From: a virus
DNA length: 34,731 nucleotides
Direction: 5' to 3' (one strand)
IMG/VR virus record: IMGVR_UViG_3300023117_000049
Location: 1 to 34,731 of that record
In this document: one piece after another, positions 2,302 to 29,097 of the stretch
Layout: each line of letters begins with the position of its first letter
How positions within the stretch are numbered: the stretch's first letter is position 1
Notes under the pieces: model-generated
What the model saw: the letters and a program-made list of their open reading frames with translations, nothing else
Database searches by the model: none
Told to the model about the DNA's origin: nothing
Made by a program: the position numbers and the translations under genes

Positions 2302-3954
2302 ATGAGTACGTTCTATACGCCGGATGGCGCGGCGGTAAACACCGCTCCCGAGTCAGGATTAACACAAGCCTCCGCGAATATCTCGGGGGCTTGTAGTGCT
2401 TCTAGTGTAGGTAATTACATACTATTACCTACCGTTACTGTGCCAGCGTCTGGCACCGTCGCTCCCACCGCTATACGTACCGTTTTACCAGATAGTCAAT
2501 CTACTGGTACGACGTTTTGGGTGCCGCGTGGCGTAAAAACACATCTTAGTTCAGCCGTAAACTTTAGTTCTACCGGAAGCGTAAACGCTTTCGTACTTAG
2601 GACTATACAGGTAGTTTCTTCTGTTATAGCTACCGCCAGTTTAGCGGCTATCCCCGCTGATGCTCTGGGTGAGTCCGATGCGTCGTCTGTGGCGACTGTT
2701 TCCCCCGCCGCGACTAGGGTGCAGTTTTCAACTGCCGCGTCTAGTGCGTCAGGTAGCGCCACAGCTACCGCCGATGTAAATAGATTTGTTGTAGCTAATA
2801 TAGGCTCTAACAACACGGTCTATGTGACAGTCGGCATAAACGGTGTTTTTGAAGCCTACGCACCAGTACCATGCACTGCTAGTTTAGCTATAGACCCAGT
2901 TGGGCTACGTACTGCACCGGCGTTAGCCACTGTTGCCGCTAGCGCTAGCTCACTTGCTAACGCTACACAAGTACAGCCGGGACTAGCACAACCATTGGGC
3001 GTTTCGTCTACGCTTATTATTGATCCGTTTTTGTCTATAAGCCCCGGTGTAGCCATAACTGCGTCTGGGTCAATACAAAGTTCTCCATTTATTAACACAC
3101 CCATCAGTAGCGCTATTTCTGCGTCTGTTACAACTACTGGTCGTGGGTCACAAACTTTTCAAGCGACAACTGACTTAGAACCTAATCTAAGCACTATTGT
3201 AGCTAATATAAATACTAAGTTTTCTTCTTCGGCTGTTATACGAGGAAACACTAGTAATAGCGCTACTGGCGTTATTTTTAAGGTTTCCGAAGCAAACGTA
3301 AGCGCCCAAGCGGGCGTCGCAAACGATGATACTGTTACACACCAACTTACCTGTACACTAAGTGCTCCAAATGCTGTAGTAACAGTGGAGGCTAGGTTGG
3401 CAGAGCGTGGTGAATCTAACATAAGTGCGCCTTCTGGGGCTGTACTGGTCGAGGCGCGGCTGGCAGAACAGGGTCAAGTAACCGCGAGTTCTTCTGCGGC
3501 ACTACTTATTTTAGACAACCAGCTACTTGTAACGCGGTTTGTAGAAGCTCAGCTTACACCGGCGGCCACTGTCTCCTCTACCGGAGTAATTATCAAGGTA
3601 GCAATAGCTAGTCTAAGTGCTCCAAACGCCGTAGTGACAGCGGCGGCGCGGTTAGCAGAACGTGGTGAAGCCGATATAAACGGCGCGAATACAGTCGCAA
3701 ACGTACCCGGAGTTCTTACAAAGCTACCAAATGTTGAAATATCTCCTACTGGGCAAGTAGTTTTAGGAGACGAGAACTTTGTATTTATTGTACAATTTGC
3801 TGAGTCTTCAGTGGCTGGATCAGGAACTGTACTAGCAGATAGCGTTGCTAACATAGATAGCTTAGATCCAGCCCAAAGAACCTTTGTACGGCCACCTATG
3901 ACAACCAACTTTGTGAGGCCGTTCCAGCAATTTACGTTTAGGAGGCCGTCATGA
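2302..3954 (+). CDS. Repetitive Ala/Ser/Val-rich virion protein
   Basis: I do not recognise this 550-residue protein. It is almost wholly predicted beta strand, very rich in Ala, Ser, Thr and Val, and nearly Cys-free. Three copies of a ~19-residue unit occur around residues 353-456 (SAPNAVVTVEARLAERGE, SAPSGAVLVEARLAEQGQ, SAPNAVVTAAARLAERGE). The C-terminus changes character to an aromatic, basic end (RTFVRPPMTTNFVRPF), which could be an attachment segment. It sits between the Gp80-like gene and the fibre-adaptor gene, which its stop overlaps (ATGA). A fibre, spike or elongated surface protein is likely. Codons ATA, CTA, TTA and AGT are frequent, in contrast to the preceding gene, suggesting low copy number or a different origin. 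Confidence 0.6.
   Translation: MSTFYTPDGAAVNTAPESGLTQASANISGACSASSVGNYILLPTVTVPASGTVAPTAIRTVLPDSQSTGTTFWVPRGVKTHLSSAVNFSSTGSVNAFVLRTIQVVSSVIATASLAAIPADALGESDASSVATVSPAATRVQFSTAASSASGSATATADVNRFVVANIGSNNTVYVTVGINGVFEAYAPVPCTASLAIDPVGLRTAPALATVAASASSLANATQVQPGLAQPLGVSSTLIIDPFLSISPGVAITASGSIQSSPFINTPISSAISASVTTTGRGSQTFQATTDLEPNLSTIVANINTKFSSSAVIRGNTSNSATGVIFKVSEANVSAQAGVANDDTVTHQLTCTLSAPNAVVTVEARLAERGESNISAPSGAVLVEARLAEQGQVTASSSAALLILDNQLLVTRFVEAQLTPAATVSSTGVIIKVAIASLSAPNAVVTAAARLAERGEADINGANTVANVPGVLTKLPNVEISPTGQVVLGDENFVFIVQFAESSVAGSGTVLADSVANIDSLDPAQRTFVRPPMTTNFVRPFQQFTFRRPS
3358..3669 (+). repeat. Three degenerate in-gene repeats
   Basis: Within the 550-aa gene, 3358-3414 and 3613-3669 encode nearly the same 19 residues beginning LSAPNAVVT and ending AERGE. 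A third, more divergent copy lies at about 3424-3477 (SAPSGAVLVEARLAEQGQ). The outer two copies differ at scattered positions, mostly synonymous, so the repeat looks maintained at protein level. Confidence 0.75.
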
Positions 3955-7200: not shown

Positions 7201-9461
7201 ACGTAGCAATAGGCGAGGAAGCAGGAAGACTTAATACTACTGGCTTTGAGCAAGTTGCGATTGGTAAAAGCGCATTACGAGCTAACACTACCGGATCAAG
7301 AAACATAGGTATTGGTTTTCAGGCGCTTACAAACAATACCATTGGCGTACAAAACATAGCTATCGGTAGGAACGCACTCCGAGACAACAATAGCGGCAAC
7401 TACAATGTCGCTATTGGAAACTCCGCTTTATCAGCAAATACCAATAATTATTCCACCGCCGTGGGTTACGCGGCATTTTCCGTCGCCACAACTGCCAACC
7501 GAGCAGTGGCGGTTGGTTACAGTGCAGGCGCTAATGTAACGACTGGAATTAGAAATAACTTTATCGGTGCGTATTCTGGCTATAGCACTACCACAGGACA
7601 GCAAAATGTAGGCGTAGGAGAGCAAGCACTCTACACCTGTACAACAGGTTCTTATAACGCCATTGTTGGTAATGCCGCATTAGCAAACTCAACCACTGCG
7701 TCTTATAACGTGGCTTTGGGCTATTCGGCCTTACTTTTAACCACGATAGGTAACTACAATACTTCGCTTGGCTACCAGACTTTGTACTCTAATACTACGG
7801 GTGCAAATAACGTCGCTGTCGGTGCGCTTGCTTTAGACTCAAACACAACAGGCGATGATAATGTCGCTGTTGGTTACTCTGCATTAGGTCAAGCTACGAC
7901 AGTTACCGGCAACACAGCAGTAGGCCGATCAGCGCTTACCCAAATGACAACCGGCCACAGCAACACCGCTGTCGGTTGGTCAAGCCAATACAGCACAACA
8001 ACCGGAATAAACAATACTTCGTTAGGCTATCAAGCCCTTTATTCATCGACTACTGCTAGTTCTTTAACTGCTGTTGGGCAATCGGCGCTTTATTCTAATA
8101 CTAGCGGCACTGCTAACACTGCTCTTGGTAGAGCGGCTATGCGTTTGAATACTGTTGGTGATGCTAACGTAGCGGTGGGAAATGACGCATTAGAAAATAA
8201 TACTGGCGGGGACAATAATGTTGCTGTTGGTTATCGCAGTTTGCAATTAAATACCACTGGTTTTCAAAACACAGCAGTAGGCGCATTTGCTTTGGACGCG
8301 CTTACAACAGCCGTAGAAAACACTGCGGTTGGTTACAACGCCTTAGGCGCGGCAACTACCGGAAATTCTAATACAGCCTTAGGCAGAAACGCTGGAGGCT
8401 CAATAACTACTGGAATCGTAAACGTAATGGTTGGCGAATCTGCTGGCGCAAGTATTACGAGTGGTAGCTACAACACGGTAACAGGCAAAAATGCCGCCCT
8501 CTATACGACTACTTCTAACTATAACTGCGTTTATGGCTATGAAGCACTTAGGCAGAACGCAGTAGGATCACATAACGTAGCTGTTGGCTTTAGAACGGCA
8601 TATAACAACACCGCATCCGACAATACGGCTGTCGGTAACTATGCGCTTTATAGCAACACTAGCGGTACATATAATGTAGCAGTGGGCTATCAAGCCTTGT
8701 ATAACACCACAACTTCCAGCAATACGGGGGTTGGTTATTGGTCTTTAATTGACTGCACCACTGGCGCTTATAACACTGCAATCGGCAGGATTTCAGCCCA
8801 GAACGTAACGACAGGGCAATTTAATACAGCGCTTGGATATAACGCGCTATCTGGTATAACAGTGGGAAGTTACAACATTGCCATAGGCGGTAATTCTGCT
8901 CTCAATCTGAGCGGCGGTAATGGCAATGTAATGATCGGCTATGACACTGAGCCAGCTTCGGCATCAACTTCTCATTCTATCGTCATCGGTTATAACGTCA
9001 CAGGTGTTACTGGTAGCTACTACATAACGATGGGCTACAGCGTTGGTAGTAGTCGTATTTATAACGACCCTACTGCAAATGCCTCTTGGACGCGAGTTTC
9101 TGATGAGCGATACAAAAAAGAAATCGCTGATAATACAGACTGCGGATTGTCGTTCATAAACGATTTGCGCCCTGTTACATTTAAGTGGAAAGCAAAGTCT
9201 GAGATTGATCCCTCACTTCCTGACTACGATGAAACCGAGACAGAGGCAAAGCACACTTCCAAAATGTATGGTCTGATTGCCCAAGAGGTTAAGCAGGCAA
9301 TGGACAATCATGGAATTACGGATTTTGGCGGCTGGGATCAGGAAGAAAGCACAGGCATTCAAGCCATTTCACAGGAGATGTTTGTTTATCCGCTAATCAA
9401 AGCGGTACAAGAATTGTCTGCCAAGGTAGACGCATTAGAAGCCCAACTAAGTGGAGAGTAA
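4233..9461 (+). CDS. Giant tail fibre with beta-roll repeats and S74 chaperone
   Basis: This 1742-residue protein has distinct regions. Residues 1-105 form an N-terminal attachment domain (AQTLHNNVFTKLAASLSNSA, ... VTRGQEGTAARAW). About 105-330 holds fibre elements such as GTQNLSNKTI and 'TTPALGTFTD'. About 375-410 contains LHDLHDVFVDAPGTGEIIRY, and about 455-560 holds GSDLEIYHDGSNSYI-type strands. Residues 564 to ~1600 are a long array of 17-residue repeats of the YadA-head kind. Residues 1623-1742 form an intramolecular chaperone (peptidase S74). Its catalytic pair is visible in SDERYK: Ser1623 and Lys1628, matching the Ser/Lys dyad of endosialidase chaperones. Cleavage before Ser1623 would release a 1622-residue trimeric fibre. 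The chaperone ends in a coiled-coil helix (VQELSAKVDALEAQL). The fibre presumably binds the host surface. Confidence 0.92.
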   Translation: MAQTLHNNVFTKLAASLSNSATSISLLDGSDFPTPAVGDFYFATLVSISASTGKEDDWEIVKVTGKPATNTLTVTRGQEGTAARAWDTYTPCEIRITAGTVVMPDGTQNLSNKTITSSTLDSTVVGGTTAAAGSFTDLDATTVDATNVEVTNLKAKDGTAAGSIADSTGVVSLNSAVLTTADINGGTVDGATVGQTTPALGTFTDMVADELQLTGGTGDQGKLSWNSDEDTVALVISSGESLQLGQEVEYNVRNNSGSSIAKGVPVMITGTLGSSGRITIGEMDASSVANETKYLGITAEAIGSGADGKVMFFGKVSGLDTSSYSAGDLLFLDTSVVGGLTATEPNSGIKMGVAYVVHSHASAGVLMVRPTTSVGLHDLHDVFVDAPGTGEIIRYNATSGLWETKTLAEADIATVTYVDSQITSNNELSEILATGNATGGTDIAVGTGDDITFADSSKAIFGAGSDLEIYHDGSNSYITDAGTGDLRIRGANVEIQTGGGNKYFQGAANVASLYHTNNIKLNTTSTGINVTGTAVTDGLTVAGNLSVDSGTIKLDGNFPTGTSNTALGLNALNNTLTGERNVAVGREAGDAITSGERNTLMGYRAGSAITTGLRNVAIGEQAFLSNTTGSYNTAVGTFALINNTTAIGNEAFGYSALFENTTGTQNSALGYGALLSNTTGSYNTAVGRGALNVATTANYNVAVGRYSLVTNTTGASNVAVGAESLYSNVTGAGITGVGYRAGYNVTADNNTAIGNQAIGSTTAVTSGANNIAMGTSALFNVTSGSNNVGIGISSLRENTTASDNTAVGYLSLNNSTTATLNTAIGSNAGRFITTGGQNVAVGMNALYSLTTASLNVAVGKGALSTETTTSGCVAIGAEAANSNNGAITTAVGYQALKVNTTGGSNTALGYQALKNATTASFNNAVGRAALSSATTGSYNIAFGYAALATSTTAQFNVGIGHNALASTTTGSQNVGVGYTALESNTTGYWNVAIGEEAGRLNTTGFEQVAIGKSALRANTTGSRNIGIGFQALTNNTIGVQNIAIGRNALRDNNSGNYNVAIGNSALSANTNNYSTAVGYAAFSVATTANRAVAVGYSAGANVTTGIRNNFIGAYSGYSTTTGQQNVGVGEQALYTCTTGSYNAIVGNAALANSTTASYNVALGYSALLLTTIGNYNTSLGYQTLYSNTTGANNVAVGALALDSNTTGDDNVAVGYSALGQATTVTGNTAVGRSALTQMTTGHSNTAVGWSSQYSTTTGINNTSLGYQALYSSTTASSLTAVGQSALYSNTSGTANTALGRAAMRLNTVGDANVAVGNDALENNTGGDNNVAVGYRSLQLNTTGFQNTAVGAFALDALTTAVENTAVGYNALGAATTGNSNTALGRNAGGSITTGIVNVMVGESAGASITSGSYNTVTGKNAALYTTTSNYNCVYGYEALRQNAVGSHNVAVGFRTAYNNTASDNTAVGNYALYSNTSGTYNVAVGYQALYNTTTSSNTGVGYWSLIDCTTGAYNTAIGRISAQNVTTGQFNTALGYNALSGITVGSYNIAIGGNSALNLSGGNGNVMIGYDTEPASASTSHSIVIGYNVTGVTGSYYITMGYSVGSSRIYNDPTANASWTRVSDERYKKEIADNTDCGLSFINDLRPVTFKWKAKSEIDPSLPDYDETETEAKHTSKMYGLIAQEVKQAMDNHGITDFGGWDQEESTGIQAISQEMFVYPLIKAVQELSAKVDALEAQLSGE
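5922..9050 (+). repeat. ~60 tandem 51-bp coding repeats (beta-roll array)
   Basis: The protein repeat is 17 residues with consensus N-[TV]-A-[VLI]-G-x-x-[AS]-L-x-x-[NT]-T-T-[GA]-x-[YN]. Roughly 60 units run without a long break from residue 564 to about 1600. At DNA level the units are diverged: 6105-6140 and 6258-6293 encode the same 12 residues with 10 of 36 bases different, all synonymous. A few units are shortened or lengthened (for example around 6160-6180 and 6470-6530). Such repeats form left-handed parallel beta-rolls in trimeric adhesins. Confidence 0.9.
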
Positions 9462-19211: not shown

Positions 19212-19744
19212 TAAAGAACTACGTGTTCTATGATTTTAAAGGGGAAATAACGGGTTTTATTACCCAAGATGACAGCCTTACTTTACCTAGTGGTAATTTT
19301 ATAGAGGTGTCTGAGAGCGATCTAACTGATGATCCCAGTAAATTCTACATAAAACTCCCCGAAACCATTTACGATCCTGACCCATACCTAGCGCAGTTGC
19401 CCGCAGAACCCCATCCACAAGCTGTGTTTAACTACACGACCAAAGAGTGGCAGGTGACTGATGAGGTAAAAAATGAGGTGGCGCTAACTCAGGTACGGAA
19501 TATTCGTAACGAGCTTCTGGCCGCATCTGATTGGACGCAAAGCCCTGACTCTCCTCTAACCGTTACGAAAAAGACGGAATGGCGTAATTACCGCAACCTA
19601 CTACGTGATATAACAGAAACTTACGAAGATGTTTTAGACGCTAATGACGTAACTTGGCCTACAGCCCCGTCTACACCTACGGACGACTTTGGTGGTGGGT
19701 ATGACCCGAACGACGTTGATGTGGATTTGTTTGATACAAGATGA
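19208..19744 (+). CDS. Phage tail assembly chaperone-like protein
   Basis: This 178-residue protein overlaps both neighbours by ATGA. The N-terminal ~90 residues are a small beta domain (FYDFKGEITGFITQDDSLTL). Residues ~95-165 carry VRNIRNELLAASDWTQSPDS, then EWRNYRNLLRDITETYEDVL and VTWPTAPS. This is the 'RNxLLxxSDWTQxPDxPL...WxxYRxxLRDI...WPxxP' signature of the Phage_tail_APC family found after fibre and tip genes. It probably assists folding or attachment of the tip protein encoded just before. The C-terminus is acidic. Confidence 0.75.
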   Translation: MIKNYVFYDFKGEITGFITQDDSLTLPSGNFIEVSESDLTDDPSKFYIKLPETIYDPDPYLAQLPAEPHPQAVFNYTTKEWQVTDEVKNEVALTQVRNIRNELLAASDWTQSPDSPLTVTKKTEWRNYRNLLRDITETYEDVLDANDVTWPTAPSTPTDDFGGGYDPNDVDVDLFDTR

Positions 19745-20169
19745 CAGCCACACCCGCCAAAAGACTCGTATTTGATCGTAAAGAGCTAATAAGTGCGTGG
19801 GTTGCCGCTAAAACAGAGCAGGTAACAACTTGGGGCGACCACTACGCTATGGGGGTTATGGAAGGCAGTACCGTCGTGGCAGGCGTAGTGTTTAACAACT
19901 TCAACGGGGCCAACGCTACGTGCCATATAGCTGTCGATAAGTCAGGGAAAATACTAATAAAGTTGTTCCAAGCGGCGTATGATTATGCGTTTAATCAGTG
20001 TAAACTTAAGCGATTGACAGGCATGGTCCCAACTAGTATGCCAGACGTAATAGCATTTGACCAAAAACTTGGCCTTAAGTACGAATTTACGATGAAAGAC
20101 GCGCATCCAGATGGGGATATAGTGGTCCTGTGCGGAACCCCTGAATCCTGTAAGCGTTGGAGGACATAG
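19741..20169 (+). CDS. GNAT-like acetyltransferase-fold protein
   Basis: This 142-residue protein follows the GNAT order. An opening helix/strand (VFDRKELISAWVAAKTEQV) is followed by central strands (VMEGSTVVAGVVFNNFNGAN, ATCHIAVDK). A helix follows (LIKLFQAAYDYAFNQCKLKR), then LTGMVPTSMPDVIAFDQKLG, LKYEFTMKDAHPDGDIVVL. The 'A-F-D-Q-K-L-G-L-K-Y-E' near the end is the usual GNAT strand-helix close. The acetyl-CoA pyrophosphate loop (Q/RxxGxG/A) is not clear, so activity is uncertain. Similar proteins appear beside internal virion genes in podoviruses (recalled). It is coupled to its neighbour by ATGA. Confidence 0.7.
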   Translation: MTATPAKRLVFDRKELISAWVAAKTEQVTTWGDHYAMGVMEGSTVVAGVVFNNFNGANATCHIAVDKSGKILIKLFQAAYDYAFNQCKLKRLTGMVPTSMPDVIAFDQKLGLKYEFTMKDAHPDGDIVVLCGTPESCKRWRT

Positions 20170-20173
20170 GAAT

Positions 20174-21208
20174 ATGGGTGGAAAATCAGCATCAGCACCT
20201 GATTATACGGAACTAGCGGCGGCTTCGCGTGAAGCTGTAGCGGCTGGAGAGCGGCTGGGTAACAGACAACTCGACTTTTCAGAGCAACAGTACGCCGAAC
20301 TTAGCCCTATTTTCAGGGAAATCGCCGCAGGTCAGATCGCCGCACAGGACGAGCAATTAGCCCAAGCGCGGGACTATTACCAGTACATGCAAGAGACGTT
20401 CCGGCCAGTTGAGCGCGGAATCGTCGAAGATGCTATGGCTTTCAGCACGGAATCGTACCGTGAGCGGATGGCTGGAGAAGCCGCCGCCGCCGCTGGGCGA
20501 GCATTTACCAACTTGCAACGATCTGCGTCCAGAGCCGATGCCGCTAGAGGACTTAACCCCAACTCCCCTGCCGCTAGAGCCTTGCGCCAACAGGCAAATG
20601 TAGAGATGGCGGCGTCCAGATCACAACAAATGACCGGCGCTAGAGATAGGGCTGAACAACTTGGCTACGCAAGACAGCTTGATGCCGCAGGACTCGGTAG
20701 AGGACTCCCCGGTGCTAGTGCCGGTGCGTATGCTGGCTCTGTTGGGGCCGGAACCGCTGGTGTTAATACCTCTATGGCGGCTGGCAATCAGTACATGGCA
20801 GGCTTAGGCCAAGGCGCAGGCACCATGATGTCTGGATACCAGACGGGTATGCAGGGCTTTGGCAACATAGTTAACAGCCAAACTAGTATCTACAACAACG
20901 CTATGAACGCACAGGGCGAATTCCTTGGGTCTGTCATGGGACTTGGTGGACAACTTGGTGCGGCGGCTATTTCTGATCGACGACTTAAAGAAGACATTAA
21001 GTTCCTCCACGAAGACATGAACAGCGGCCTTAACGTTTACGAGTTTAGCTATGTAGGCGAGCCGAACCGCAGGTTTATTGGTGTGATGGCAGACGAGGTA
21101 GAAGAAGTCTTCCCAGAAGCAGTACATTACGGAGAAGACGGCTACGCGAGCGTCGATTACGCGGCGATTGGTATGAGAATGATAGAAGTATCAGAGGAGG
21201 TCGCGTAA
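20174..21208 (+). CDS. Internal/ejection-type virion protein with S74 chaperone domain
   Basis: This 344-residue protein has an N-terminal helical half rich in Ala, Gln and Glu (SREAVAAGERLGNRQLDFSE). A Gly/Ala/Met-rich flexible section covers ~170-250 (AYAGSVGAGTAGVNTSMAAG). The C-terminal part is a compact peptidase S74 chaperone beginning SDRRLKEDIKFL, with Ser267 and Lys272 as the catalytic pair. It has FIGVMADEVEEVFPEAV and ends VSEEVA. The domain is only ~78 residues and lacks the long terminal helix of the fibre's chaperone. Cleavage before Ser267 would leave a 266-residue product. GGAGG at 20159-20163 precedes the start. It heads the internal-protein block and overlaps the next start (TAATG). 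Confidence 0.75.
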   Translation: MGGKSASAPDYTELAAASREAVAAGERLGNRQLDFSEQQYAELSPIFREIAAGQIAAQDEQLAQARDYYQYMQETFRPVERGIVEDAMAFSTESYRERMAGEAAAAAGRAFTNLQRSASRADAARGLNPNSPAARALRQQANVEMAASRSQQMTGARDRAEQLGYARQLDAAGLGRGLPGASAGAYAGSVGAGTAGVNTSMAAGNQYMAGLGQGAGTMMSGYQTGMQGFGNIVNSQTSIYNNAMNAQGEFLGSVMGLGGQLGAAAISDRRLKEDIKFLHEDMNSGLNVYEFSYVGEPNRRFIGVMADEVEEVFPEAVHYGEDGYASVDYAAIGMRMIEVSEEVA

Positions 21209-22902
21209 TGGGCTGGGCGGCAGGGTTCAGAGCAGGCTCTCAGATGGGCGCGGATATACTTGATACATATCGCGCCGCGAAAAAGAACCGCGAGATGAAA
21301 GAGATCGAAGCGGGTATTCAACAACAACGCGACGATGCTACGGCTGAGCAACAGACTCAACAGGCCAATATACAGGTTATGGCGGGGCAACAGCCCGGAC
21401 AAGCACAACAGCAACAACTTGCCCGCAACGTTGGTCTAGCCCCTGCGATTAATCCACAGCAGTCTATGGTGGCACCTTCCGGTCAGCAGTTGGCTGGCAG
21501 AGCTACGAATGTACCTGCTATGGGTCAGATGTCACCTGTAGGTAGCGAAGCTATGGGACTTGGCCCTGCGGCGAAAGGTCCGATGAGCGAGGCAATGGAG
21601 GAGCGCGAACGTGCCCGCCAGCTACGGAGTCTAGGTTACACCGACGAAGCCAATCAAGCCCTTGACCGCTCACTTCAGTTGCAGGCGATTGACGAGGAAC
21701 GTAGGCGTTTTGAGTTAACAGAAGCACGCGCTATGCGCGGAGAACAGCGTCAGGATAAACGTTTAGGATTTGAGGAGACACGTTTAGGTTTTGATGAAGC
21801 TCGTGAAGAACGTGCGCAAGAGTTGTTCAATCAACAAACTGAGTTGTTTGGTTATCAGATTGCAGACTTACAGCGTCAGGATGAACTCAGGAAAACCATA
21901 GACGGTTTCGCAGGTATGACTGCTAACGAAATTATTACCTCGCCGGAGTACCAAGATTTAAGTCTGAGCGATAAAAAAGTAGTCGCTGGTATGTCAGCAG
22001 AAGTTACGTCTAGCGAGTTAGAAGCGTCTAATGCGTTTATAAAACAGCAACTTAGCGCTATTAAAACAGACGAAGACTTGCTTAACTTTGTAAACCAAGA
22101 CGAGTCTATTACCGCAGGGACTCGCTACGACGTAAAAGTAGGCGAAGATGGTAAAGTAACTTTACAGTACCAGACAGATGGTGGCGAAGCTATAGGGCGA
22201 CCCGTACCGTTTGAAACTGAAAAACAAGCAATCAACTACTTGCGACAATTAGTCCAAGATCCCGGTACTGCGGCTGTGTACTATGAAACTGTTTTTCAAG
22301 GTATGCAACAGAAAGCGGCAACTGCCGCCGCTAATGCAGAAGACAATAGGCAATTTGCGCTTGAGCAAATTACTGATCTACAAACCGAATTCCTTGAGCC
22401 TACCGGCGTTTGGGCGCAGATGAGAAGGACTGACCCAGAGCAATTCCGTAAGGTAAAAGAGTCTGTGTTTGCACCCTTTAAAAATTACCTTAGCCCTGCG
22501 CAGTTTGAAGAATTAACTGAGCAACTACCTGATCCTCAGTCCACGGCGGGTGAGGGCAACTTAGGAGAATCCATAGCAGAAGGGCTTAGTAGCGCTACAG
22601 CAGAAGGCACGGTTTTTGATACAGCGGTAGGCGTTCCAGCCCGCGCAGTTGCAGACGCTACAAAACGTAATATTATTAACCCTGTTAGTCAGCTTGTTAG
22701 CGATGCTGGTTCACGACAAAGAGTCGCCGGTAGACTTAGAAATCAAGGTTCTAAGCTAGACGATATAGCAACTGACGATCTGCTAGCTACATTGGATCTT
22801 TACGATCCGGGCACTAGGGAAAACAGGCTAATAAGGGCTGAATTAGCGCGTAGGCAGTACGCCGCTAACAATGTAGGTATGGCATCTGGGCTAGGCGCGT
22901 AA
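21208..22902 (+). CDS. Internal virion (ejection) protein, coiled-coil
   Basis: This 564-residue protein begins MGWAAGFRAGSQMGADILDT, a Gly-rich amphipathic helix, then a Gln-rich section (about 35-85). A long charged coiled coil spans ~125-240 (LDRSLQLQAIDEERRRFELT and the near-repeat RLGFEETRLGFDEAREERAQ). A mixed alpha/beta middle follows, and then a C-terminal helical part (DDIATDDLLATLDLYD). This layout and its place before the giant protein match ejection proteins of podoviruses such as the T7 gp15 position. No enzymatic motif is seen. AAGGAG overlapping its stop serves the next gene. Confidence 0.65.
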   Translation: MGWAAGFRAGSQMGADILDTYRAAKKNREMKEIEAGIQQQRDDATAEQQTQQANIQVMAGQQPGQAQQQQLARNVGLAPAINPQQSMVAPSGQQLAGRATNVPAMGQMSPVGSEAMGLGPAAKGPMSEAMEERERARQLRSLGYTDEANQALDRSLQLQAIDEERRRFELTEARAMRGEQRQDKRLGFEETRLGFDEAREERAQELFNQQTELFGYQIADLQRQDELRKTIDGFAGMTANEIITSPEYQDLSLSDKKVVAGMSAEVTSSELEASNAFIKQQLSAIKTDEDLLNFVNQDESITAGTRYDVKVGEDGKVTLQYQTDGGEAIGRPVPFETEKQAINYLRQLVQDPGTAAVYYETVFQGMQQKAATAAANAEDNRQFALEQITDLQTEFLEPTGVWAQMRRTDPEQFRKVKESVFAPFKNYLSPAQFEELTEQLPDPQSTAGEGNLGESIAEGLSSATAEGTVFDTAVGVPARAVADATKRNIINPVSQLVSDAGSRQRVAGRLRNQGSKLDDIATDDLLATLDLYDPGTRENRLIRAELARRQYAANNVGMASGLGA

Positions 22903-22914
22903 GGAGCTAACCAA

Positions 22915-25900
22915 ATGGGTGTTAGTTCATTAGCGGATCTCCGCAGTAAAGTAAATCCAACACTTGCGCAAGCCAGTGACGAAGAACTTGTCATTGAGTA
23001 CGCCAAAGATATTGGCCGCGATCCGCAAGAAATTGCCGAATACTTTGGTGTAGAAACGGGCCGTGGCTCAAGTGCTCTTGGCGCTGGTTTCGGTATGGGC
23101 GTCGATCAAGCGCAAGCTATGATTGCCGGTACTGGTGCCGCACTTGCCGATGTTGTGGGCGCAACAGGCGTACGAGACGCCTTAGAAGCAGAAGCAAGAC
23201 AACAGCAGGCGCAATCATACCTAGCACGTAATCCAGAAGTTGCCCAGAGAGTCGAAGACATACAAGGTTTGGGTGACGTTCCCGGCTATGTCTTTGGTCA
23301 GTTGGGCCAGCAGGTGCCCATTGTTGGCGGCATACTTGGTGCTTCTGCGTTGGGTACGCTAGCAGGTGGCCCTGTAGGTGGTTTAGCGGCAGGTTTAGGT
23401 ACGTCATACACCTATGGTGTAGGCTCTCTGTATAACGAAGCCTTGGAAGGTGGCGAGCGAAAAACCGCAGAAGCCTTGACTACGGCAGTGCCGTACGCCG
23501 CCGCAGAAGCACTTTTACCACTTGGTCTTGGTAGGATAGCGCGAGCCGCTGGTAGTGCCGCCAAAACCCGTAGAGGGGCGATAGCCAAAGCAGGGGCAGG
23601 GGGAGCGATTACAGAAGCCGCAACCGAAGCGTTCCAGACCAGCCTAGAAATCGGTATGCGGGATGACCTCTCGCCCGAAGAAATCTACTCTCGTTACCTA
23701 AACGCCGCTGTATCTGGCGGTCTTGTTGGTGGCGGATTCTCCGGTGTTGGCGGTGCGTTTGCTAAACTACCGAAGAAGGAGACTGACCCCGATGCTGACG
23801 TTACTGACACTGACGTTGATACTGGACCTGTTGATACAGCACCAGAGAACAATGTTGTACCGGACGCAGAGGGCGGCGTTAATCTCGCAGGCTCACAAGC
23901 AGAGGTGGACGCTAATCGCGTAGCCCAAGAGCAAGACGCAGAACTGCGTGAGCTAACTAAAGCTGAGTGGCGAGAATCGTTACTACCCCTGACAGGGCGT
24001 AAGCTAACTCGGGGCGACCGTAGAAAGTTAGAAGGTCGCAAGAAAAACCTTGAGTACGATCTTGAGGTAGCGGAAGAACAAGTTGCTCCATCGGTAACGC
24101 CACGGTACAGAGAGCTACCAAAAACTAGACGCCGCCGCGTCAAAGAAATGACCGCTGAGCGCCGCGCAGAAGTACAGCAAGAGCTTAACAACATAAACAC
24201 TCAGCTTGTCGCGGATAACATCTCCCGTATGGCCGAAGCTGATTTGACGGGCTTGGATAACGATGTAACGCCAGTTGAACGAGCAATGGCTGAAGCCGAG
24301 CAACGTGCGCAAGCTGAAGCTGAAGCCGCCCAACGCGTGCAAGGTGATGTAAGTCCAGAAGTAGCGCCAGAAACGCTAGAAGAAGGCATAGACTTAGCTC
24401 AGCAGGTGGCTCCCGCCGCTATGCCAGAAACCGAGGTAGCACCAGAGCCTGCCGTAGAGCCAGTGCAAGCTGTATCCCCCGTAGTAGAAACAGACTTGCA
24501 GGTTGCGCAACCTGCAACAGAACCTACACCCGAAGCCATTAGTCCTGTAGTTGAGGAAGAACTGGTAACGGCTGAAGACATCGAAGGTGAAGTCCAAAAA
24601 GACCAAGACATCGCACGAACACTAGCGGCAGAAGTTGAGTCAGATAACGTAAAAGTAGCTGGCCCTATTACTTTAGAACAGCCTGTTATAGCGGCTATTG
24701 CTCGACACTTGCGAAGTCCTAAAGCGTCTGGCCTGAATGTAGTTTACGAGCCGGGAACGGCTAATCCTGTAGATGTTGCCCCCGAGGTGTCTGCTCAAAT
24801 TGACGGGGTGCGGCAGGCTGTATTTGCTGTAGCGCAAGCTAAGGCTAGTTACGACAACGTGGCTAGCAACATACTGGACAAAGATACAGACGCGGATATT
24901 GTAGGTAAAGAAGATACAGCTACCGCTGTAGCTGAAGCTAATTACGAAAAACGCGAAACAGCACGACAAAACCTAGTGACAGCAGTAGAAAATTTTATAG
25001 CTGTTGCAGGTAGTCCACAAAACGCAAACGCAATTATCGCCGCGTTCAAGACTACTAAAGAAAAACGTGGCAAGAGCAGAGATTTAAACAGCGCAGAGTC
25101 AGAGTTCTTAAGTGGTGTAATGCCTACCAAACGTGGGCTAGCTTATAAAAAACTCGCTGGGTTCCACCAACAGCTTGACATAGGGCTGTCTAGCGCTTTC
25201 CGTGCTTACGCAAATGGTGAGTTAACCGCTTCACCTGACTTTGCACCCAGAAGCGCCCCGGTTCGACAAAACAAACAACAACGCGAAGCAGAGAAAAAAG
25301 CTGGCATACGCTTGTTTGAACGGGATTTACAAGCCGCAGTAGAAGGCGGCGCGTTAGGTAACAGCGCAAGGACTACACCTGACCGAGCTACTGAGCGCAA
25401 AATAGATGACGCTGTGAAAAGCGAAAAAGCTAGGCTGAAGGAGCAACGAGACAACAAAACTTTAACCGTGCCCCAGTACAGAAAAGCCGTAAAGGACGCT
25501 GAAGCAAGAGGGCAGGCCGCTAAAGACGCTGAGCAAGCAAAAATTGACGCTAGATTAGCGGAAACTCAAGGGTTTGAGGCTCTTATTAATAGAGCTTTGG
25601 ACACAGGAGTTGCCAACGTAACAGAAAGACTAATTGCTAAATTAGCGCGTAGAGCCATAAAAGCACGCCGAGGTGCGGTCATCCCTGATCCTGTTATTGA
25701 GTTTGGTGATGAGTCTAGCTTTGACCCAAATAAAACTGCTGGCGGCACCATAACACTCAAGCGTGAAAGTAGCCCAGAAGTTGTTGCACACGAAGCCTTG
25801 CACGCTTTGTTGCAGGGTTTTGTTTACGCCAACAGGAGTACCAGAGTACCGGGGCATGACCCAGAAGTAGTTAAAACAGTAGACCTACTTCGTGGTTACG

Positions 25901-28900
25901 TAAAAACTCTTGTTAGCTTGGACATGGATAAGTTAAACGACCCCCTAACGCCAGCGCAAAAAGCTAAAGCTAGCGAAGCTATAAGCGTGCTTCGTGACTT
26001 AGTAAACCGTGGCGATGCAAATGGGGAAGTAGACGCAGTACTTGAACTTATTTCATACGGCAACACCTTGCGTGATATGAAGATGTTGCTCACCAGAGTA
26101 GAACGTCGTAGAACCGAAAAAACGGCGGATTGGCGTACAACTTTAAGGGGCATATTTGAAGTAATCCGTAGGTTGTTAAACAAACTTACGGGGGCTTCAG
26201 ACACAGCCGCGAACGACGTAATTGACGCCACAGTTGCCTTACTTGAGGGCGTAACAGCTAAGCCTGTAGCTCCCAAAAAAGGCAAGAAACTAATGGTAGG
26301 TAAGCCAGTTAAAAAGCTACCTCTAAATGGCACAGCTAACCCCGCTGAATTTAATATCGACTTACGTAATGAAGTAGCTGGTAAGGATTGGGTAATTTCT
26401 AGCAAAGTTATTTTTGATTTGCTTGGTTGGGACAAACGTATGAAATGGTCAGGCGAAAAATTGTCTGCCTTAAACAAGTACATCAAAAAGAATTTACCTT
26501 GGGTGGAGTCGTTTGTTCGTGGGTGGGAGCCTACTTACGGCGACAAGACCCTTGGTCGCATGATTGATTTCTTAAAGTCAGACAAGCACAACGGCTACCT
26601 ACGTGCAGAAGTATTCGCTGACATAATTATGCGGAGCGACAAAGAACTAGTACAAGATATGTTTGCCTATTTAGACGGCAACAAAAAAGCATTGGAAGGC
26701 AATCCGCATAGGGAGCAGTACGAAGAACTGCTTAACTCTTTGCAAGACTTTTTAGATACGTACATAGAAGCTCTGCCGGAGAAAGAACGGGATAAGTTTA
26801 CTGCTAGACCGCTTAGCGAGTCTTTGCTGTTTGTCGAGACTAAGGAAGACATAGGTAGCCAGACAATCGGCAAGATGCGTAAGATAAGTCGCATACTGGG
26901 CCGCAAACGTGAAATAGAAGACAACATAGAAGAACAGTTGATGTTCGACGAAGATGGCGTACTTAATACCCAAGACGCTATTTATGTACGCGCTGTTAAG
27001 TACGACAAAGACGGCAAGGAAGTTGATAAAGTGTACGCCCGTGCAGACATAGCGGCTAAAACTGGCAATGTCATTACGTTTGAAGATAACAACGGCAACC
27101 TTAATACATACGTAGTGGCAGACCCCGATGCAAGGTACAAAGTAGCTTACACAAACGACAAGAAGCGGTATGTATTTACTACCAATATGTCGGCCAAGCA
27201 GTTGTTGAGAGGTGAAGCTAGGCGCGAAGACAGGGAAAAGTTAGCAAACGCCGTTCGTAATACCGTCGCTACACTCGCTAACTCTTATTCTTCTGGCGAA
27301 TTTATTAGCGCTCTTGCCGCGTCAGGTCGTAAGGCTGATGGTTCGCTAGATATTTCAGAAAGCGCCGAACCTGTTTACGTTTTTGACAGCGTTGAAGAAC
27401 TCAATGCGTACAGCGAAGCAATGGCTGAAATAGATGGGTATGTGCCTAAAGTATACGAGGGCCAACTTATACCCACCGTAGGCGATTCAGTGGCTACAGA
27501 ATCCAGAGTAGGAGACACACTGCGTGTCACTGGGTCGTATGTAAAGTTTCCCCCCAACGAAGTTATTTGGGGTGAGTTAGCTGGCAAAATCGTATCTGGG
27601 CCAGTGTATAGCGCCATGCACGACGCCACAAATAAAGAAAACATATTCCAAGGAGACTTGGCTAGAAAATACAATACAACTGTACGTTGGTTTAAAAAGT
27701 CAAAGACCATATACAACCCAAGTACGATTGTTACTAACGTAGCATCCAACGTTACTCTTATGCTAGCGCATGGTATACGCCCATCTACAGTAGCTAAAGC
27801 CGCCAAACTATTGAAGCGGTACTACGTAGATAAAGACCTTAAAGGTGCTGACCTAGAGCTAATGTCTGCGTTTATGAACTCAGGCGCTTTGTTAGGCAAT
27901 TTTTCTAGCCAAGAAGTTAAAGAAAGTCTTAGCCAAGCATTTGCTGACAACATGTATGAAGATAAAGCTGGCGTACACGGTATAGTGGCGCAGTTGCTTA
28001 GCGTTGAAAAAGCTAAAGCACAAGCCTTCAAAAAACATATCGGTGATATGAAAGGCAAAGCTGATGTTATTGATGACAAAGCGATTGGCTTCTATGCCTA
28101 TGGCGATAACATTTTCCGCATGGCGGCATTTATGGACTACGTTGGCAAGATACAAGCCGACAACGGTAGCGTGCCTGTAAGCAAAGCACAGCTAAAAGAA
28201 GCCGGTATCGCCGCTCGCAAGATGTTTTTAGACTACGATATTGACTCGCGGTACTTGCAACTACTGCGCCAAACCATTGTACCGTTTGCATCTTGGACAT
28301 ACGCCATCATGCCTGTGTTGAGCAAAATTATTGTTACTCAACCTTGGAAGCTCGCTAATATCATGGGCGCTTACGCCATGATCGACACAGTTGCTTCTGC
28401 CCTTGTTGGTGATGATGACGAAGAAACTCGCAGGCGTATGGGAGAGTTGTACAACGAGCGTCTGTTTGGCATTGGGCCACACGCCATGATCCGCGTGCCG
28501 TTTTTTGGCGACGAAAATAACCCTGTTTATATTAAGCTGGGTAACTACATACCGTTACACAGCACGTTCAAGGGTACGCCTAATGGTACGTTCGGTATTG
28601 AAGGGTGGCCGTCTGGCTTAGCGCCCACTGGCCCAATTATTAGTGCGCTTTCTATGGCGATAAATAAAGACTCCTATACTGGCAAAGAAATTTGGGGTTC
28701 CACCGATAGCGCTTACGACCGCATGGTTGAGTTTGGAAATCAAGTAACAGACATAGTATTACCCCCAATTATTGCTTCTAATGCGCGAAAAAAGTATGAA
28801 GAAGCTCTTGAAGGTAAACTTGGCATAACAGGCGGAAGAAACCCGTCTACTGACCCAACAATGGTGGTATTACAAGCGTTCGGTTTGAAGCTGTACCAAC

Positions 28901-29097
28901 CCAACACCGCAGAAGAAGCTATGTGGAAGCAATTAGCCGCTAAAAAAGCCGTGCGCGAGTACCAAATGGCGATGTCTAGGGCACGGCGGGAGATGGCTAG
29001 GTCAGGAACTTATGACGCAGAAGCGCTGGCCTCAGAGCTAGAACGTTTGCGCGAAGATATGCTTCAAGAGATTGATGAAGTTTTCAATAGAGACTAA
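22915..29097 (+). CDS. Giant polyvalent internal virion protein with metallopeptidase
   Basis: This 2060-residue protein has several regions. About 1-110 is a helical start. About 130-185 is a Gly-rich hydrophobic stretch (VPIVGGILGASALGTLAGGP), with a second at ~265-280 (SGGLVGGGFSGVGGAFA), resembling membrane-inserting glycine-zipper segments. About 340-420 is basic, charged helix, and ~470-560 an acidic Pro/Val/Glu-rich linker. A zincin domain contains HEALH (His959, Glu960, His963) with Glu1044 in LELISYG as likely third ligand. About 1590-1890 resembles large polyvalent protein domain LPD38 (NPSTIVTNVASNVTLML, FASWTYAIMPVLSKII). A coiled coil closes the protein. It is probably ejected with DNA; proteolysis of host wall or protein targets is inferred. 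Confidence 0.8.
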   Translation: MGVSSLADLRSKVNPTLAQASDEELVIEYAKDIGRDPQEIAEYFGVETGRGSSALGAGFGMGVDQAQAMIAGTGAALADVVGATGVRDALEAEARQQQAQSYLARNPEVAQRVEDIQGLGDVPGYVFGQLGQQVPIVGGILGASALGTLAGGPVGGLAAGLGTSYTYGVGSLYNEALEGGERKTAEALTTAVPYAAAEALLPLGLGRIARAAGSAAKTRRGAIAKAGAGGAITEAATEAFQTSLEIGMRDDLSPEEIYSRYLNAAVSGGLVGGGFSGVGGAFAKLPKKETDPDADVTDTDVDTGPVDTAPENNVVPDAEGGVNLAGSQAEVDANRVAQEQDAELRELTKAEWRESLLPLTGRKLTRGDRRKLEGRKKNLEYDLEVAEEQVAPSVTPRYRELPKTRRRRVKEMTAERRAEVQQELNNINTQLVADNISRMAEADLTGLDNDVTPVERAMAEAEQRAQAEAEAAQRVQGDVSPEVAPETLEEGIDLAQQVAPAAMPETEVAPEPAVEPVQAVSPVVETDLQVAQPATEPTPEAISPVVEEELVTAEDIEGEVQKDQDIARTLAAEVESDNVKVAGPITLEQPVIAAIARHLRSPKASGLNVVYEPGTANPVDVAPEVSAQIDGVRQAVFAVAQAKASYDNVASNILDKDTDADIVGKEDTATAVAEANYEKRETARQNLVTAVENFIAVAGSPQNANAIIAAFKTTKEKRGKSRDLNSAESEFLSGVMPTKRGLAYKKLAGFHQQLDIGLSSAFRAYANGELTASPDFAPRSAPVRQNKQQREAEKKAGIRLFERDLQAAVEGGALGNSARTTPDRATERKIDDAVKSEKARLKEQRDNKTLTVPQYRKAVKDAEARGQAAKDAEQAKIDARLAETQGFEALINRALDTGVANVTERLIAKLARRAIKARRGAVIPDPVIEFGDESSFDPNKTAGGTITLKRESSPEVVAHEALHALLQGFVYANRSTRVPGHDPEVVKTVDLLRGYVKTLVSLDMDKLNDPLTPAQKAKASEAISVLRDLVNRGDANGEVDAVLELISYGNTLRDMKMLLTRVERRRTEKTADWRTTLRGIFEVIRRLLNKLTGASDTAANDVIDATVALLEGVTAKPVAPKKGKKLMVGKPVKKLPLNGTANPAEFNIDLRNEVAGKDWVISSKVIFDLLGWDKRMKWSGEKLSALNKYIKKNLPWVESFVRGWEPTYGDKTLGRMIDFLKSDKHNGYLRAEVFADIIMRSDKELVQDMFAYLDGNKKALEGNPHREQYEELLNSLQDFLDTYIEALPEKERDKFTARPLSESLLFVETKEDIGSQTIGKMRKISRILGRKREIEDNIEEQLMFDEDGVLNTQDAIYVRAVKYDKDGKEVDKVYARADIAAKTGNVITFEDNNGNLNTYVVADPDARYKVAYTNDKKRYVFTTNMSAKQLLRGEARREDREKLANAVRNTVATLANSYSSGEFISALAASGRKADGSLDISESAEPVYVFDSVEELNAYSEAMAEIDGYVPKVYEGQLIPTVGDSVATESRVGDTLRVTGSYVKFPPNEVIWGELAGKIVSGPVYSAMHDATNKENIFQGDLARKYNTTVRWFKKSKTIYNPSTIVTNVASNVTLMLAHGIRPSTVAKAAKLLKRYYVDKDLKGADLELMSAFMNSGALLGNFSSQEVKESLSQAFADNMYEDKAGVHGIVAQLLSVEKAKAQAFKKHIGDMKGKADVIDDKAIGFYAYGDNIFRMAAFMDYVGKIQADNGSVPVSKAQLKEAGIAARKMFLDYDIDSRYLQLLRQTIVPFASWTYAIMPVLSKIIVTQPWKLANIMGAYAMIDTVASALVGDDDEETRRRMGELYNERLFGIGPHAMIRVPFFGDENNPVYIKLGNYIPLHSTFKGTPNGTFGIEGWPSGLAPTGPIISALSMAINKDSYTGKEIWGSTDSAYDRMVEFGNQVTDIVLPPIIASNARKKYEEALEGKLGITGGRNPSTDPTMVVLQAFGLKLYQPNTAEEAMWKQLAAKKAVREYQMAMSRARREMARSGTYDAEALASELERLREDMLQEIDEVFNRD

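What the first reader, a model, noticed from the sequence alone, without database searches (positions are those of the whole stretch)
20174..21208. Self-cleaving S74 chaperone on a non-fibre internal protein
S74 chaperones normally fold trimeric fibres. Here a compact version (SDRRLK, Ser267/Lys272) ends a helical Gly/Ala-rich protein at the head of the internal-protein block. It lacks the long terminal helix present in the fibre's copy at 1623-1742. It may control assembly timing or trimerisation of an ejection protein, and the cleaved ~78-residue piece may have a later role.
Basis: partly seen in the sequence, partly recalled or inferred. Interest (0 to 1): 0.62.

Follow-up and report, generated by a model that had tools for sequence, protein, structure and literature searches.

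The report
Self-cutting end on phage ejection protein
A phage protein in the position of those injected into the host with the DNA carries a removable self-cutting tail-end module so far described on external fibres, and hundreds of related viruses carry it at the same join, some inside long chained proteins.

Summary
ORF 20174-21208 (344 aa) is a helical, Gly/Ala-rich protein ending in a Peptidase_S74 domain with the Ser267/Lys272 dyad. It is compact: 78 residues from Ser to the end, against 120 in the window's own fibre, and it lacks the C-terminal coiled coil. It sits directly after an acetyltransferase gene and before two large proteins, the P22 gene 7 slot (gp14-gp7-gp20-gp16).

It is not a one-off. 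Relatives in Alphaproteobacteria phages, phiGT1/Mx8-type phages, P22-like Vibrio phages and many IMG/VR contigs share it. With a model blind to the first six columns, 217 of 217 S74 domains keep Ser...Lys. Relatives without S74 stop at the predicted cut (34 of 39 within 5 residues). The residues before the cut are a Gly-rich hydrophobic tail. In 46 further proteins of 1,155-1,792 aa the S74 domain is internal, twice in 12 of them.

Best reading: a self-removing C-terminal pro-domain of a gp7-slot ejection protein, probably gated by assembly. Cleavage and oligomeric state are untested. Scattered annotations name the combination, but I found no paper on it. New variant of a known kind; the internal-S74 polyproteins are the most novel part.

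The parts
20174..21208 (+). S74-bearing gp7-slot (putative ejection) protein, 344 aa
   Evidence: homologues
20207..20701 (+). helical core, aa 12-176
   Evidence: AF2 with A6, pLDDT mostly 70-91
20726..20962 (+). Gly/Ala-rich low-confidence stretch, aa 185-263
   Evidence: pLDDT under 50
20927..20971 (+). last 15 residues before the predicted cut (aa 252-266), Gly-rich hydrophobic tail; C-terminus of the predicted mature protein
   Evidence: family mean 85% hydrophobic or Gly, 2% charged
20972..21205 (+). compact S74 self-cleavage domain, aa 267-344, no C-terminal coiled coil
   Evidence: Pfam; pLDDT about 95; lengths
20972..20974 (+). codon of predicted catalytic Ser267; predicted cut Ile266|Ser267
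   Evidence: T5 and MYRF precedent
20987..20989 (+). codon of predicted catalytic Lys272
19741..20169 (+). GNAT acetyltransferase-like gene directly upstream (P22 gp14 / IVPA slot)
   Evidence: phrog_4470 E 6e-24; adjacency across families
21208..22902 (+). next internal-block protein, 564 aa (gp20 slot by order)
   Evidence: no Pfam or PHROG match
22915..29097 (+). giant protein, 2060 aa (gp16 / DarB-like slot by order)
   Evidence: no Pfam or PHROG match
9099..9458 (+). full-length S74 domain of the window's fibre (120 aa, with coiled coil), used as comparison

Best explanation
The gene encodes a virion protein in the position of P22 gp7 (first ejection protein), made as a precursor with a C-terminal S74 pro-domain. 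After the subunits come together, Ser267, activated by Lys272, attacks the Ile266-Ser267 bond and the 78-residue domain leaves. The mature 266-residue protein then ends in a Gly-rich hydrophobic tail, the same end that S74-free relatives encode directly. The S74 domain keeps this tail soluble and capped, or holds subunits in register, until assembly. Because it lacks the coiled coil that drives trimerisation in fibres and MYRF, cleavage is probably gated by assembly of the ejection protein itself. Shown by sequence: domain, dyad, gene slot, junction, coil loss. Inferred: cleavage, timing, capping, location in the particle.
For: (1) Catalytic dyad: 217/217 domains keep Ser and Lys when searched with a model lacking those columns; they are the only fully invariant columns. 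(2) Junction: of 39 S74-less homologues with no other C-terminal domain, 28 end within 2 and 34 within 5 residues of the predicted cut, e.g. BcepIL02 gp66 ...GIMAF* against Parlo ...GLMAF|SSKDYK. (3) S74 is gained or lost repeatedly on the tree: 9-10 changes, at least 4-6 forced by supported branches. (4) Tail: the 15 residues before the cut are 85% hydrophobic or Gly and 2% charged, against 48% and 17% in the whole protein; S74-free relatives end in the same kind of tail, 85%; fibre junctions are 54% and 12%. (5) Slot: GNAT gene adjacent in most loci of three families (15, 59 and 93 loci); same order in P22. (6) S74-bearing Vibrio proteins are linked by sequence to the P22 gp7 family. (7) Homologues are virion proteins: JC1 gp64 by MS (PMC9144972), phiM5 gp27.
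Against: No cleavage data exist for any ejection-type S74 that I could find. The coiled coil needed for trimerisation and cleavage in MYRF is missing here. The window's helical core shows no detectable similarity to P22 gp7; the profile comparison aligned only S74. Exact junctions could also reflect how the domain was fused. The S74-less sequences are phylogenetically clumped. Location inside the virion is not shown.
Confidence: 0.6

Rival explanations
1. The S74 domain is a permanent oligomerisation or docking domain that stays on the ejection protein; the dyad is inherited but cleavage is slow or absent.
For: The trimer-driving coiled coil is missing, and in MYRF trimers are needed for cleavage; the domain sits inside longer proteins in some relatives.
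Against: Ser and Lys are the only invariant columns in 217 domains, which is unexpected if unused; S74-less relatives end at the cut site.
Confidence: 0.2
2. It is an external tail protein (short fibre, needle or plug) using S74 in the classical way to fold a trimer.
For: S74 is described on fibres, tailspikes and appendages; many records label relatives 'tail fiber domain-containing protein' or 'putative tailspike'.
Against: Helical, Gly-rich protein with no beta-rich stalk; gp7 slot; sequence link of S74-bearing Vibrio relatives to the gp7 family; PHROG labels 'DNA ejection protein' and 'virion structural protein'.
Confidence: 0.12
3. S74 here is mainly a mobile C-terminal cassette with no strong function; its exact junction reflects recombination hot spots (S74, GEFV-type domain, or a stop plus PAPS-reductase-like gene).
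For: Three alternative C-termini and a near-exclusive PAPS-reductase-like neighbour in S74-less A1/A3 phages (23 of 27 rows, against 0 of 78 S74+).
Against: Perfect dyad conservation across very divergent lineages; S74-bearing members outnumber S74-free ones in the sampled families.
Confidence: 0.08

Closest known systems
Peptidase_S74 / intramolecular chaperone auto-processing domain of phage fibres (endoNF 3GW6, T5 pb1, GA-1 and phi29 gp12) and of MYRF
   Same: Pfam profile, Ser-Lys dyad (Lys five positions after Ser), C-terminal position, predicted fold of the core
   Different: Attached to a helical Gly-rich internal-block protein; 62-81 residues without the C-terminal triple coiled coil in this clade and its phiGT1/P22-like relatives; no upstream beta-helix; found also internally and in tandem
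P22 gp7 (DNA ejection protein, phrog_598)
   Same: Same gene slot after gp14-like gene and before two larger ejection proteins; Gly-rich hydrophobic C-terminus; a processed protein (20 N-terminal residues removed by host OpdA, record note)
   Different: gp7 has no S74; the window's core is not detectably related to it, though S74-bearing Vibrio proteins are
Bcep22-like (Lessievirus) virion proteins BcepIL02 gp66 / JC1 gp64
   Same: Homologous core (phrog_8003), same slot, found in virions (PMC9144972)
   Different: No S74; stop codon at the predicted cut; PAPS-reductase gene follows
Serratia phage Parlo gp78, Ochrobactrum POI1126 gp26, Sulfitobacter phiGT1 gp17
   Same: Ejection-slot proteins with C-terminal S74, already annotated with this domain in GenBank
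   Different: The Parlo/POI1126 clade has a longer S74 (89-142 aa) with a coiled coil; phiGT1 gp17 belongs to a different core family (A2)

Membership tests
Peptidase_S74 (PF13884) | Match to the 58-position profile above the curated cut-off | tested here: met
   40.6 bits against 22, aa 267-318, profile 1-58
Peptidase_S74 (PF13884) | Catalytic Ser and Lys five positions apart | tested here: met
   Ser267, Lys272; 217/217 relatives
Peptidase_S74 (PF13884) | S74 core fold | tested here: met
   Predicted only: pLDDT about 95; Foldseek hits to S74 proteins, rmsd 1.2-1.5 over 66-67 columns
Peptidase_S74 (PF13884) | C-terminal triple coiled coil (typical of characterised members, outside the Pfam profile) | tested here: not met
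   78 aa from Ser to end, no C-terminal helix in the model; fibres 87-132 aa. A variant feature, not part of the profile definition
Peptidase_S74 (PF13884) | Self-cleavage before Ser, in trimers | not testable with these tools
   No expression data; no multimer prediction offered
S74-dependent trimeric fibre or tailspike | Beta-rich (triple beta-helix) stalk before S74 | tested here: not met
   Helices 12-176 and a disordered Gly-rich stretch 185-263
Podovirus ejection protein, P22 gp7 slot | Gene directly after the GNAT/gp14-like gene and before two larger internal-block genes | tested here: met
Podovirus ejection protein, P22 gp7 slot | Sequence homology of the core to P22 gp7 | tested here: inconclusive
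   Window core: none detected. S74-bearing Vibrio relatives of the slot: yes
Podovirus ejection protein, P22 gp7 slot | Present in virions | tested here: inconclusive
   Shown for homologues or same-slot proteins (JC1 gp64, phiM5 gp27), not for this phage
Podovirus ejection protein, P22 gp7 slot | Leaves the virion with DNA | not testable with these tools
   needs infection experiments

The most novel reading that the evidence does not exclude
S74 is a general processing module of podovirus ejection proteins. In some lineages it turns them into a self-cleaving polyprotein: 46 distinct complete ORFs of 1,155-1,792 aa carry an internal S74 about 245-390 residues from the N-terminus, and 12 carry a second, giving EP1 | S74-middle | S74-rest, with an SLT lysozyme domain in the last part of some. 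All keep the dyad. Assembly-triggered cuts would release two or three ejection proteins from one chain inside the particle.
Probability: 0.35. Interest if true: 0.82.

Novelty: new variant of a known kind. Interest (0 to 1): 0.62.

Why it matters
Ejection proteins must stay soluble while the particle is built and become membrane-active only on infection. A self-removing C-terminal domain would be a simple, testable switch for this. It would also extend S74 from beta-stranded fibres to helical internal proteins, show that the domain can work without its coiled coil, and suggest that some phages encode their ejection apparatus as a self-cleaving polyprotein. The 2022 review of ejection proteins holds none of the terms searched for it ('cleaved', 'protease', 'trimer', 'endosialidase'; its only 'chaperone' is in a reference title).

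Tried and rejected
Truncation or frameshift as the cause of the short S74: rejected, since all 12 complete members of the window's clade and 60 of the phiGT1 clade are equally short. S74 moved to a separate ORF in S74-less loci: rejected; apart from damaged genes (L084, L212, L223) no S74 remnant lies within 600 nt downstream. S74 acting on a partner fibre: in nearly all 26 related phage records searched only one S74 domain was found, usually in this protein, so a trans role is unlikely. Structure: Foldseek and VIA-align against the PDB gave no significant match; long helices dominate the list, so this is not evidence of a new fold. phmmer against the PDB found no relative of the protein. The PAPS-reductase exclusion is striking by count but rests on only 4 independent pairs with support, sign test p 0.125-0.5. 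Paper searches on S74 with ejection or internal proteins, and on ejection polyproteins, found no description; subscription papers and supplementary tables (phiGT1 Table S3, phiM5 proteome) could not be read. A GNAT search upstream of the polyproteins hit only 11 of 64, so their slot rests on ct7L0027's annotation.

Full report
What is there. ORF 20174-21208 codes for 344 residues. Its last 78 residues are a Peptidase_S74 domain: E 3e-10, full profile, above the curated cut-off. The motif is AAI|SDRRLK, Ser267 and Lys272. The gene lies between a GNAT acetyltransferase-like gene (19741-20169) and two large proteins of 564 and 2060 aa. The window is a linear IMG/VR virus record. AF2 with 59 homologues gives a helical core, a disordered Gly-rich stretch and a confident S74 domain without a C-terminal helix. 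The whole protein matches PHROG 8003 'virion structural protein' (E 4e-35), and its C-terminal part matches PHROG 4287 'DNA ejection protein'.

It belongs to a large set. Homologues or same-slot proteins with a C-terminal S74 occur in Ochrobactrum POI1126, Sinorhizobium PBC5, Serratia Parlo, Klebsiella SJM3, Erwinia PEp14, Rhizobium RHph_I3_18, Sulfitobacter phiGT1, Myxococcus Mx8, Pseudomonas PAE2, Pseudoalteromonas H6/1 and several Vibrio phages. IMG/VR and GTDB scans with three core alignments gave over 200 loci. I call the three families A1 (window), A2 (phiGT1/RHph_I3_18) and A3 (POI1126/Parlo/Bcep22).

The active site is under constraint. To avoid circularity I searched with an S74 model from which the first six columns had been removed. 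All 217 domains found have Ser at column 1 and Lys at column 6; these are the only fully invariant columns, the next best being a Gly at 98.6%. A filter requiring the match to begin near the start of that model may have excluded some degenerate domains.

Relatives without S74 end at the cut. In families A1-A3, 39 homologues lack S74, are not damaged and have no other added domain. Of these, 28 end within 2 residues and 34 within 5 of the position just before the catalytic Ser of their S74-bearing relatives. Examples are BcepIL02 gp66 ...GTIAGAGIMAF* against Parlo ...GSIAGMGLMAF|SSKDYK, and L111 ...GSIAGMGLMAF*, 71% identical to Parlo. On the A1+A3 tree the S74 label needs 9-10 changes, at least 4-6 of them forced by supported branches. 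So the coding sequence of S74-free phages stops where a self-cleaving relative would be cut. A domain fused neatly at the old C-terminus would also give this, so it supports but does not prove cleavage.

The mature end is a Gly-rich hydrophobic tail. The 15 residues before the cut are on average 85% hydrophobic or Gly and 2% charged; the whole proteins average 48% and 17%, and the last 15 residues of S74-free relatives are also 85% hydrophobic or Gly. Fibre junctions average 54% and 12%. P22 gp7 also ends in such a tail (...AAIGGGIGLLGSLF). In one alignment its last residue falls directly before the Ser of Vibrio S74-bearing relatives; a second alignment placed the tail differently.

Link to P22 gp7. 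In P22 the order is gp10, gp26, gp14, gp7 (DNA ejection), gp20, gp16. The core of the Vibrio PVA1 S74 protein, without S74, matches 'DNA transfer/DNA ejection' proteins of Sortsne and IME279 and a same-slot protein of ZP9 (E 7e-8 to 7e-4), which match P22 gp7 (E 3e-10 to 7e-9). Direct BLASTP of gp7 against PVA1 gives 5e-8 for that single comparison. The window's own core shows no detectable similarity to gp7, so for the window the assignment rests on the slot: a GNAT gene is adjacent in 15 A1, 59 A2 and 93 A3 loci. Virion presence is known for JC1 gp64 (9 peptides, 45% coverage; PMC9144972) and phiM5 gp27 (record note).

The compact form. Ser to C-terminus is 72-81 aa in A1, 62-76 in A2, 64-79 in the P22-like and other cases, 89-142 in A3 (which has a coil), and 87-132 in twelve fibres, which run on into a C-terminal helix, in most a clear coiled coil. 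In MYRF the C-terminal triple coiled coil is the main driver of trimerisation, and cleavage needs trimers (PMC8326128). In T5 pb1 a residue from the neighbouring chain completes the active site, and the uncut domain masks the receptor site (PMC4690869). Coil-less S74 must therefore be brought together by something else, most simply by assembly of the ejection protein. This is inference.

Internal and tandem S74. Relatives of the fused protein of phage ct7L0027 are common in IMG/VR: 46 distinct complete ORFs of 1,155-1,792 aa (ct7L0027's own included) with an internal S74, and 12 with two. L294 has two S74 domains and an SLT lysozyme domain. In the 12 doubles the pieces would be 280-311, 234-526 and 735-929 residues. 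If they cut, these are self-processing ejection polyproteins.

Other C-termini. Some relatives carry a GEFV-type domain in place of S74. In A1/A3 the S74-free genes are usually followed directly by a PAPS-reductase-like gene (23 of 27 rows), which never follows an S74-bearing one (0 of 78). Most simply, this is a recombination cassette that replaces S74 at the junction; the phylogenetically independent support is weak.

What is known. The combination appears in scattered annotations (Parlo, H6/1, phiGT1, SopranoGao). A review of ejection proteins holds none of the terms 'cleaved', 'protease', 'trimer' or 'endosialidase', and 'chaperone' only in a reference title (PMC8954989). Searches of the held papers found no description of its role. 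I therefore call it a new variant of a known kind.

Noticed in passing
L294, L296, L297, L299, L306, L345, L348, L351, L355, L356, L361, L368 (complete ORFs of 1,271-1,659 aa): Two S74 self-cleavage domains inside one long putative ejection protein; 34 further distinct proteins have one internal S74.
   Followed up: partly
L018, L008, L052, L099, L106, L111, L107, L093 and others, directly 3' of the ejection-protein gene: A PAPS-reductase/PP-loop-like gene follows the S74-free ejection protein gene in A1/A3 phages and never an S74-bearing one.
   Followed up: partly
L003, L056-L059, L234, L235, L237, L240, L241, L244, L247: A third type of C-terminus on the same core, with an L..GEFV.P / LSNGEAVLN motif, also in Nitrosospira prophages.
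   Followed up: no
L007:6653-7942: A gene with radical-SAM/SPASM-like Cys motifs sits between the acetyltransferase and the S74 protein.
   Followed up: no
window 22915-29097: 2060-aa protein without Pfam or PHROG match, in the slot of the giant DarB-like proteins of related phages.
   Followed up: no
window 2302-3954: 550-aa ORF in the head block without a PHROG match.
   Followed up: no
L084, L212, L223, L246: Apparently broken or frameshifted genes of this family with S74 in the next ORF or as a remnant; may be sequencing errors or decay.
   Followed up: no
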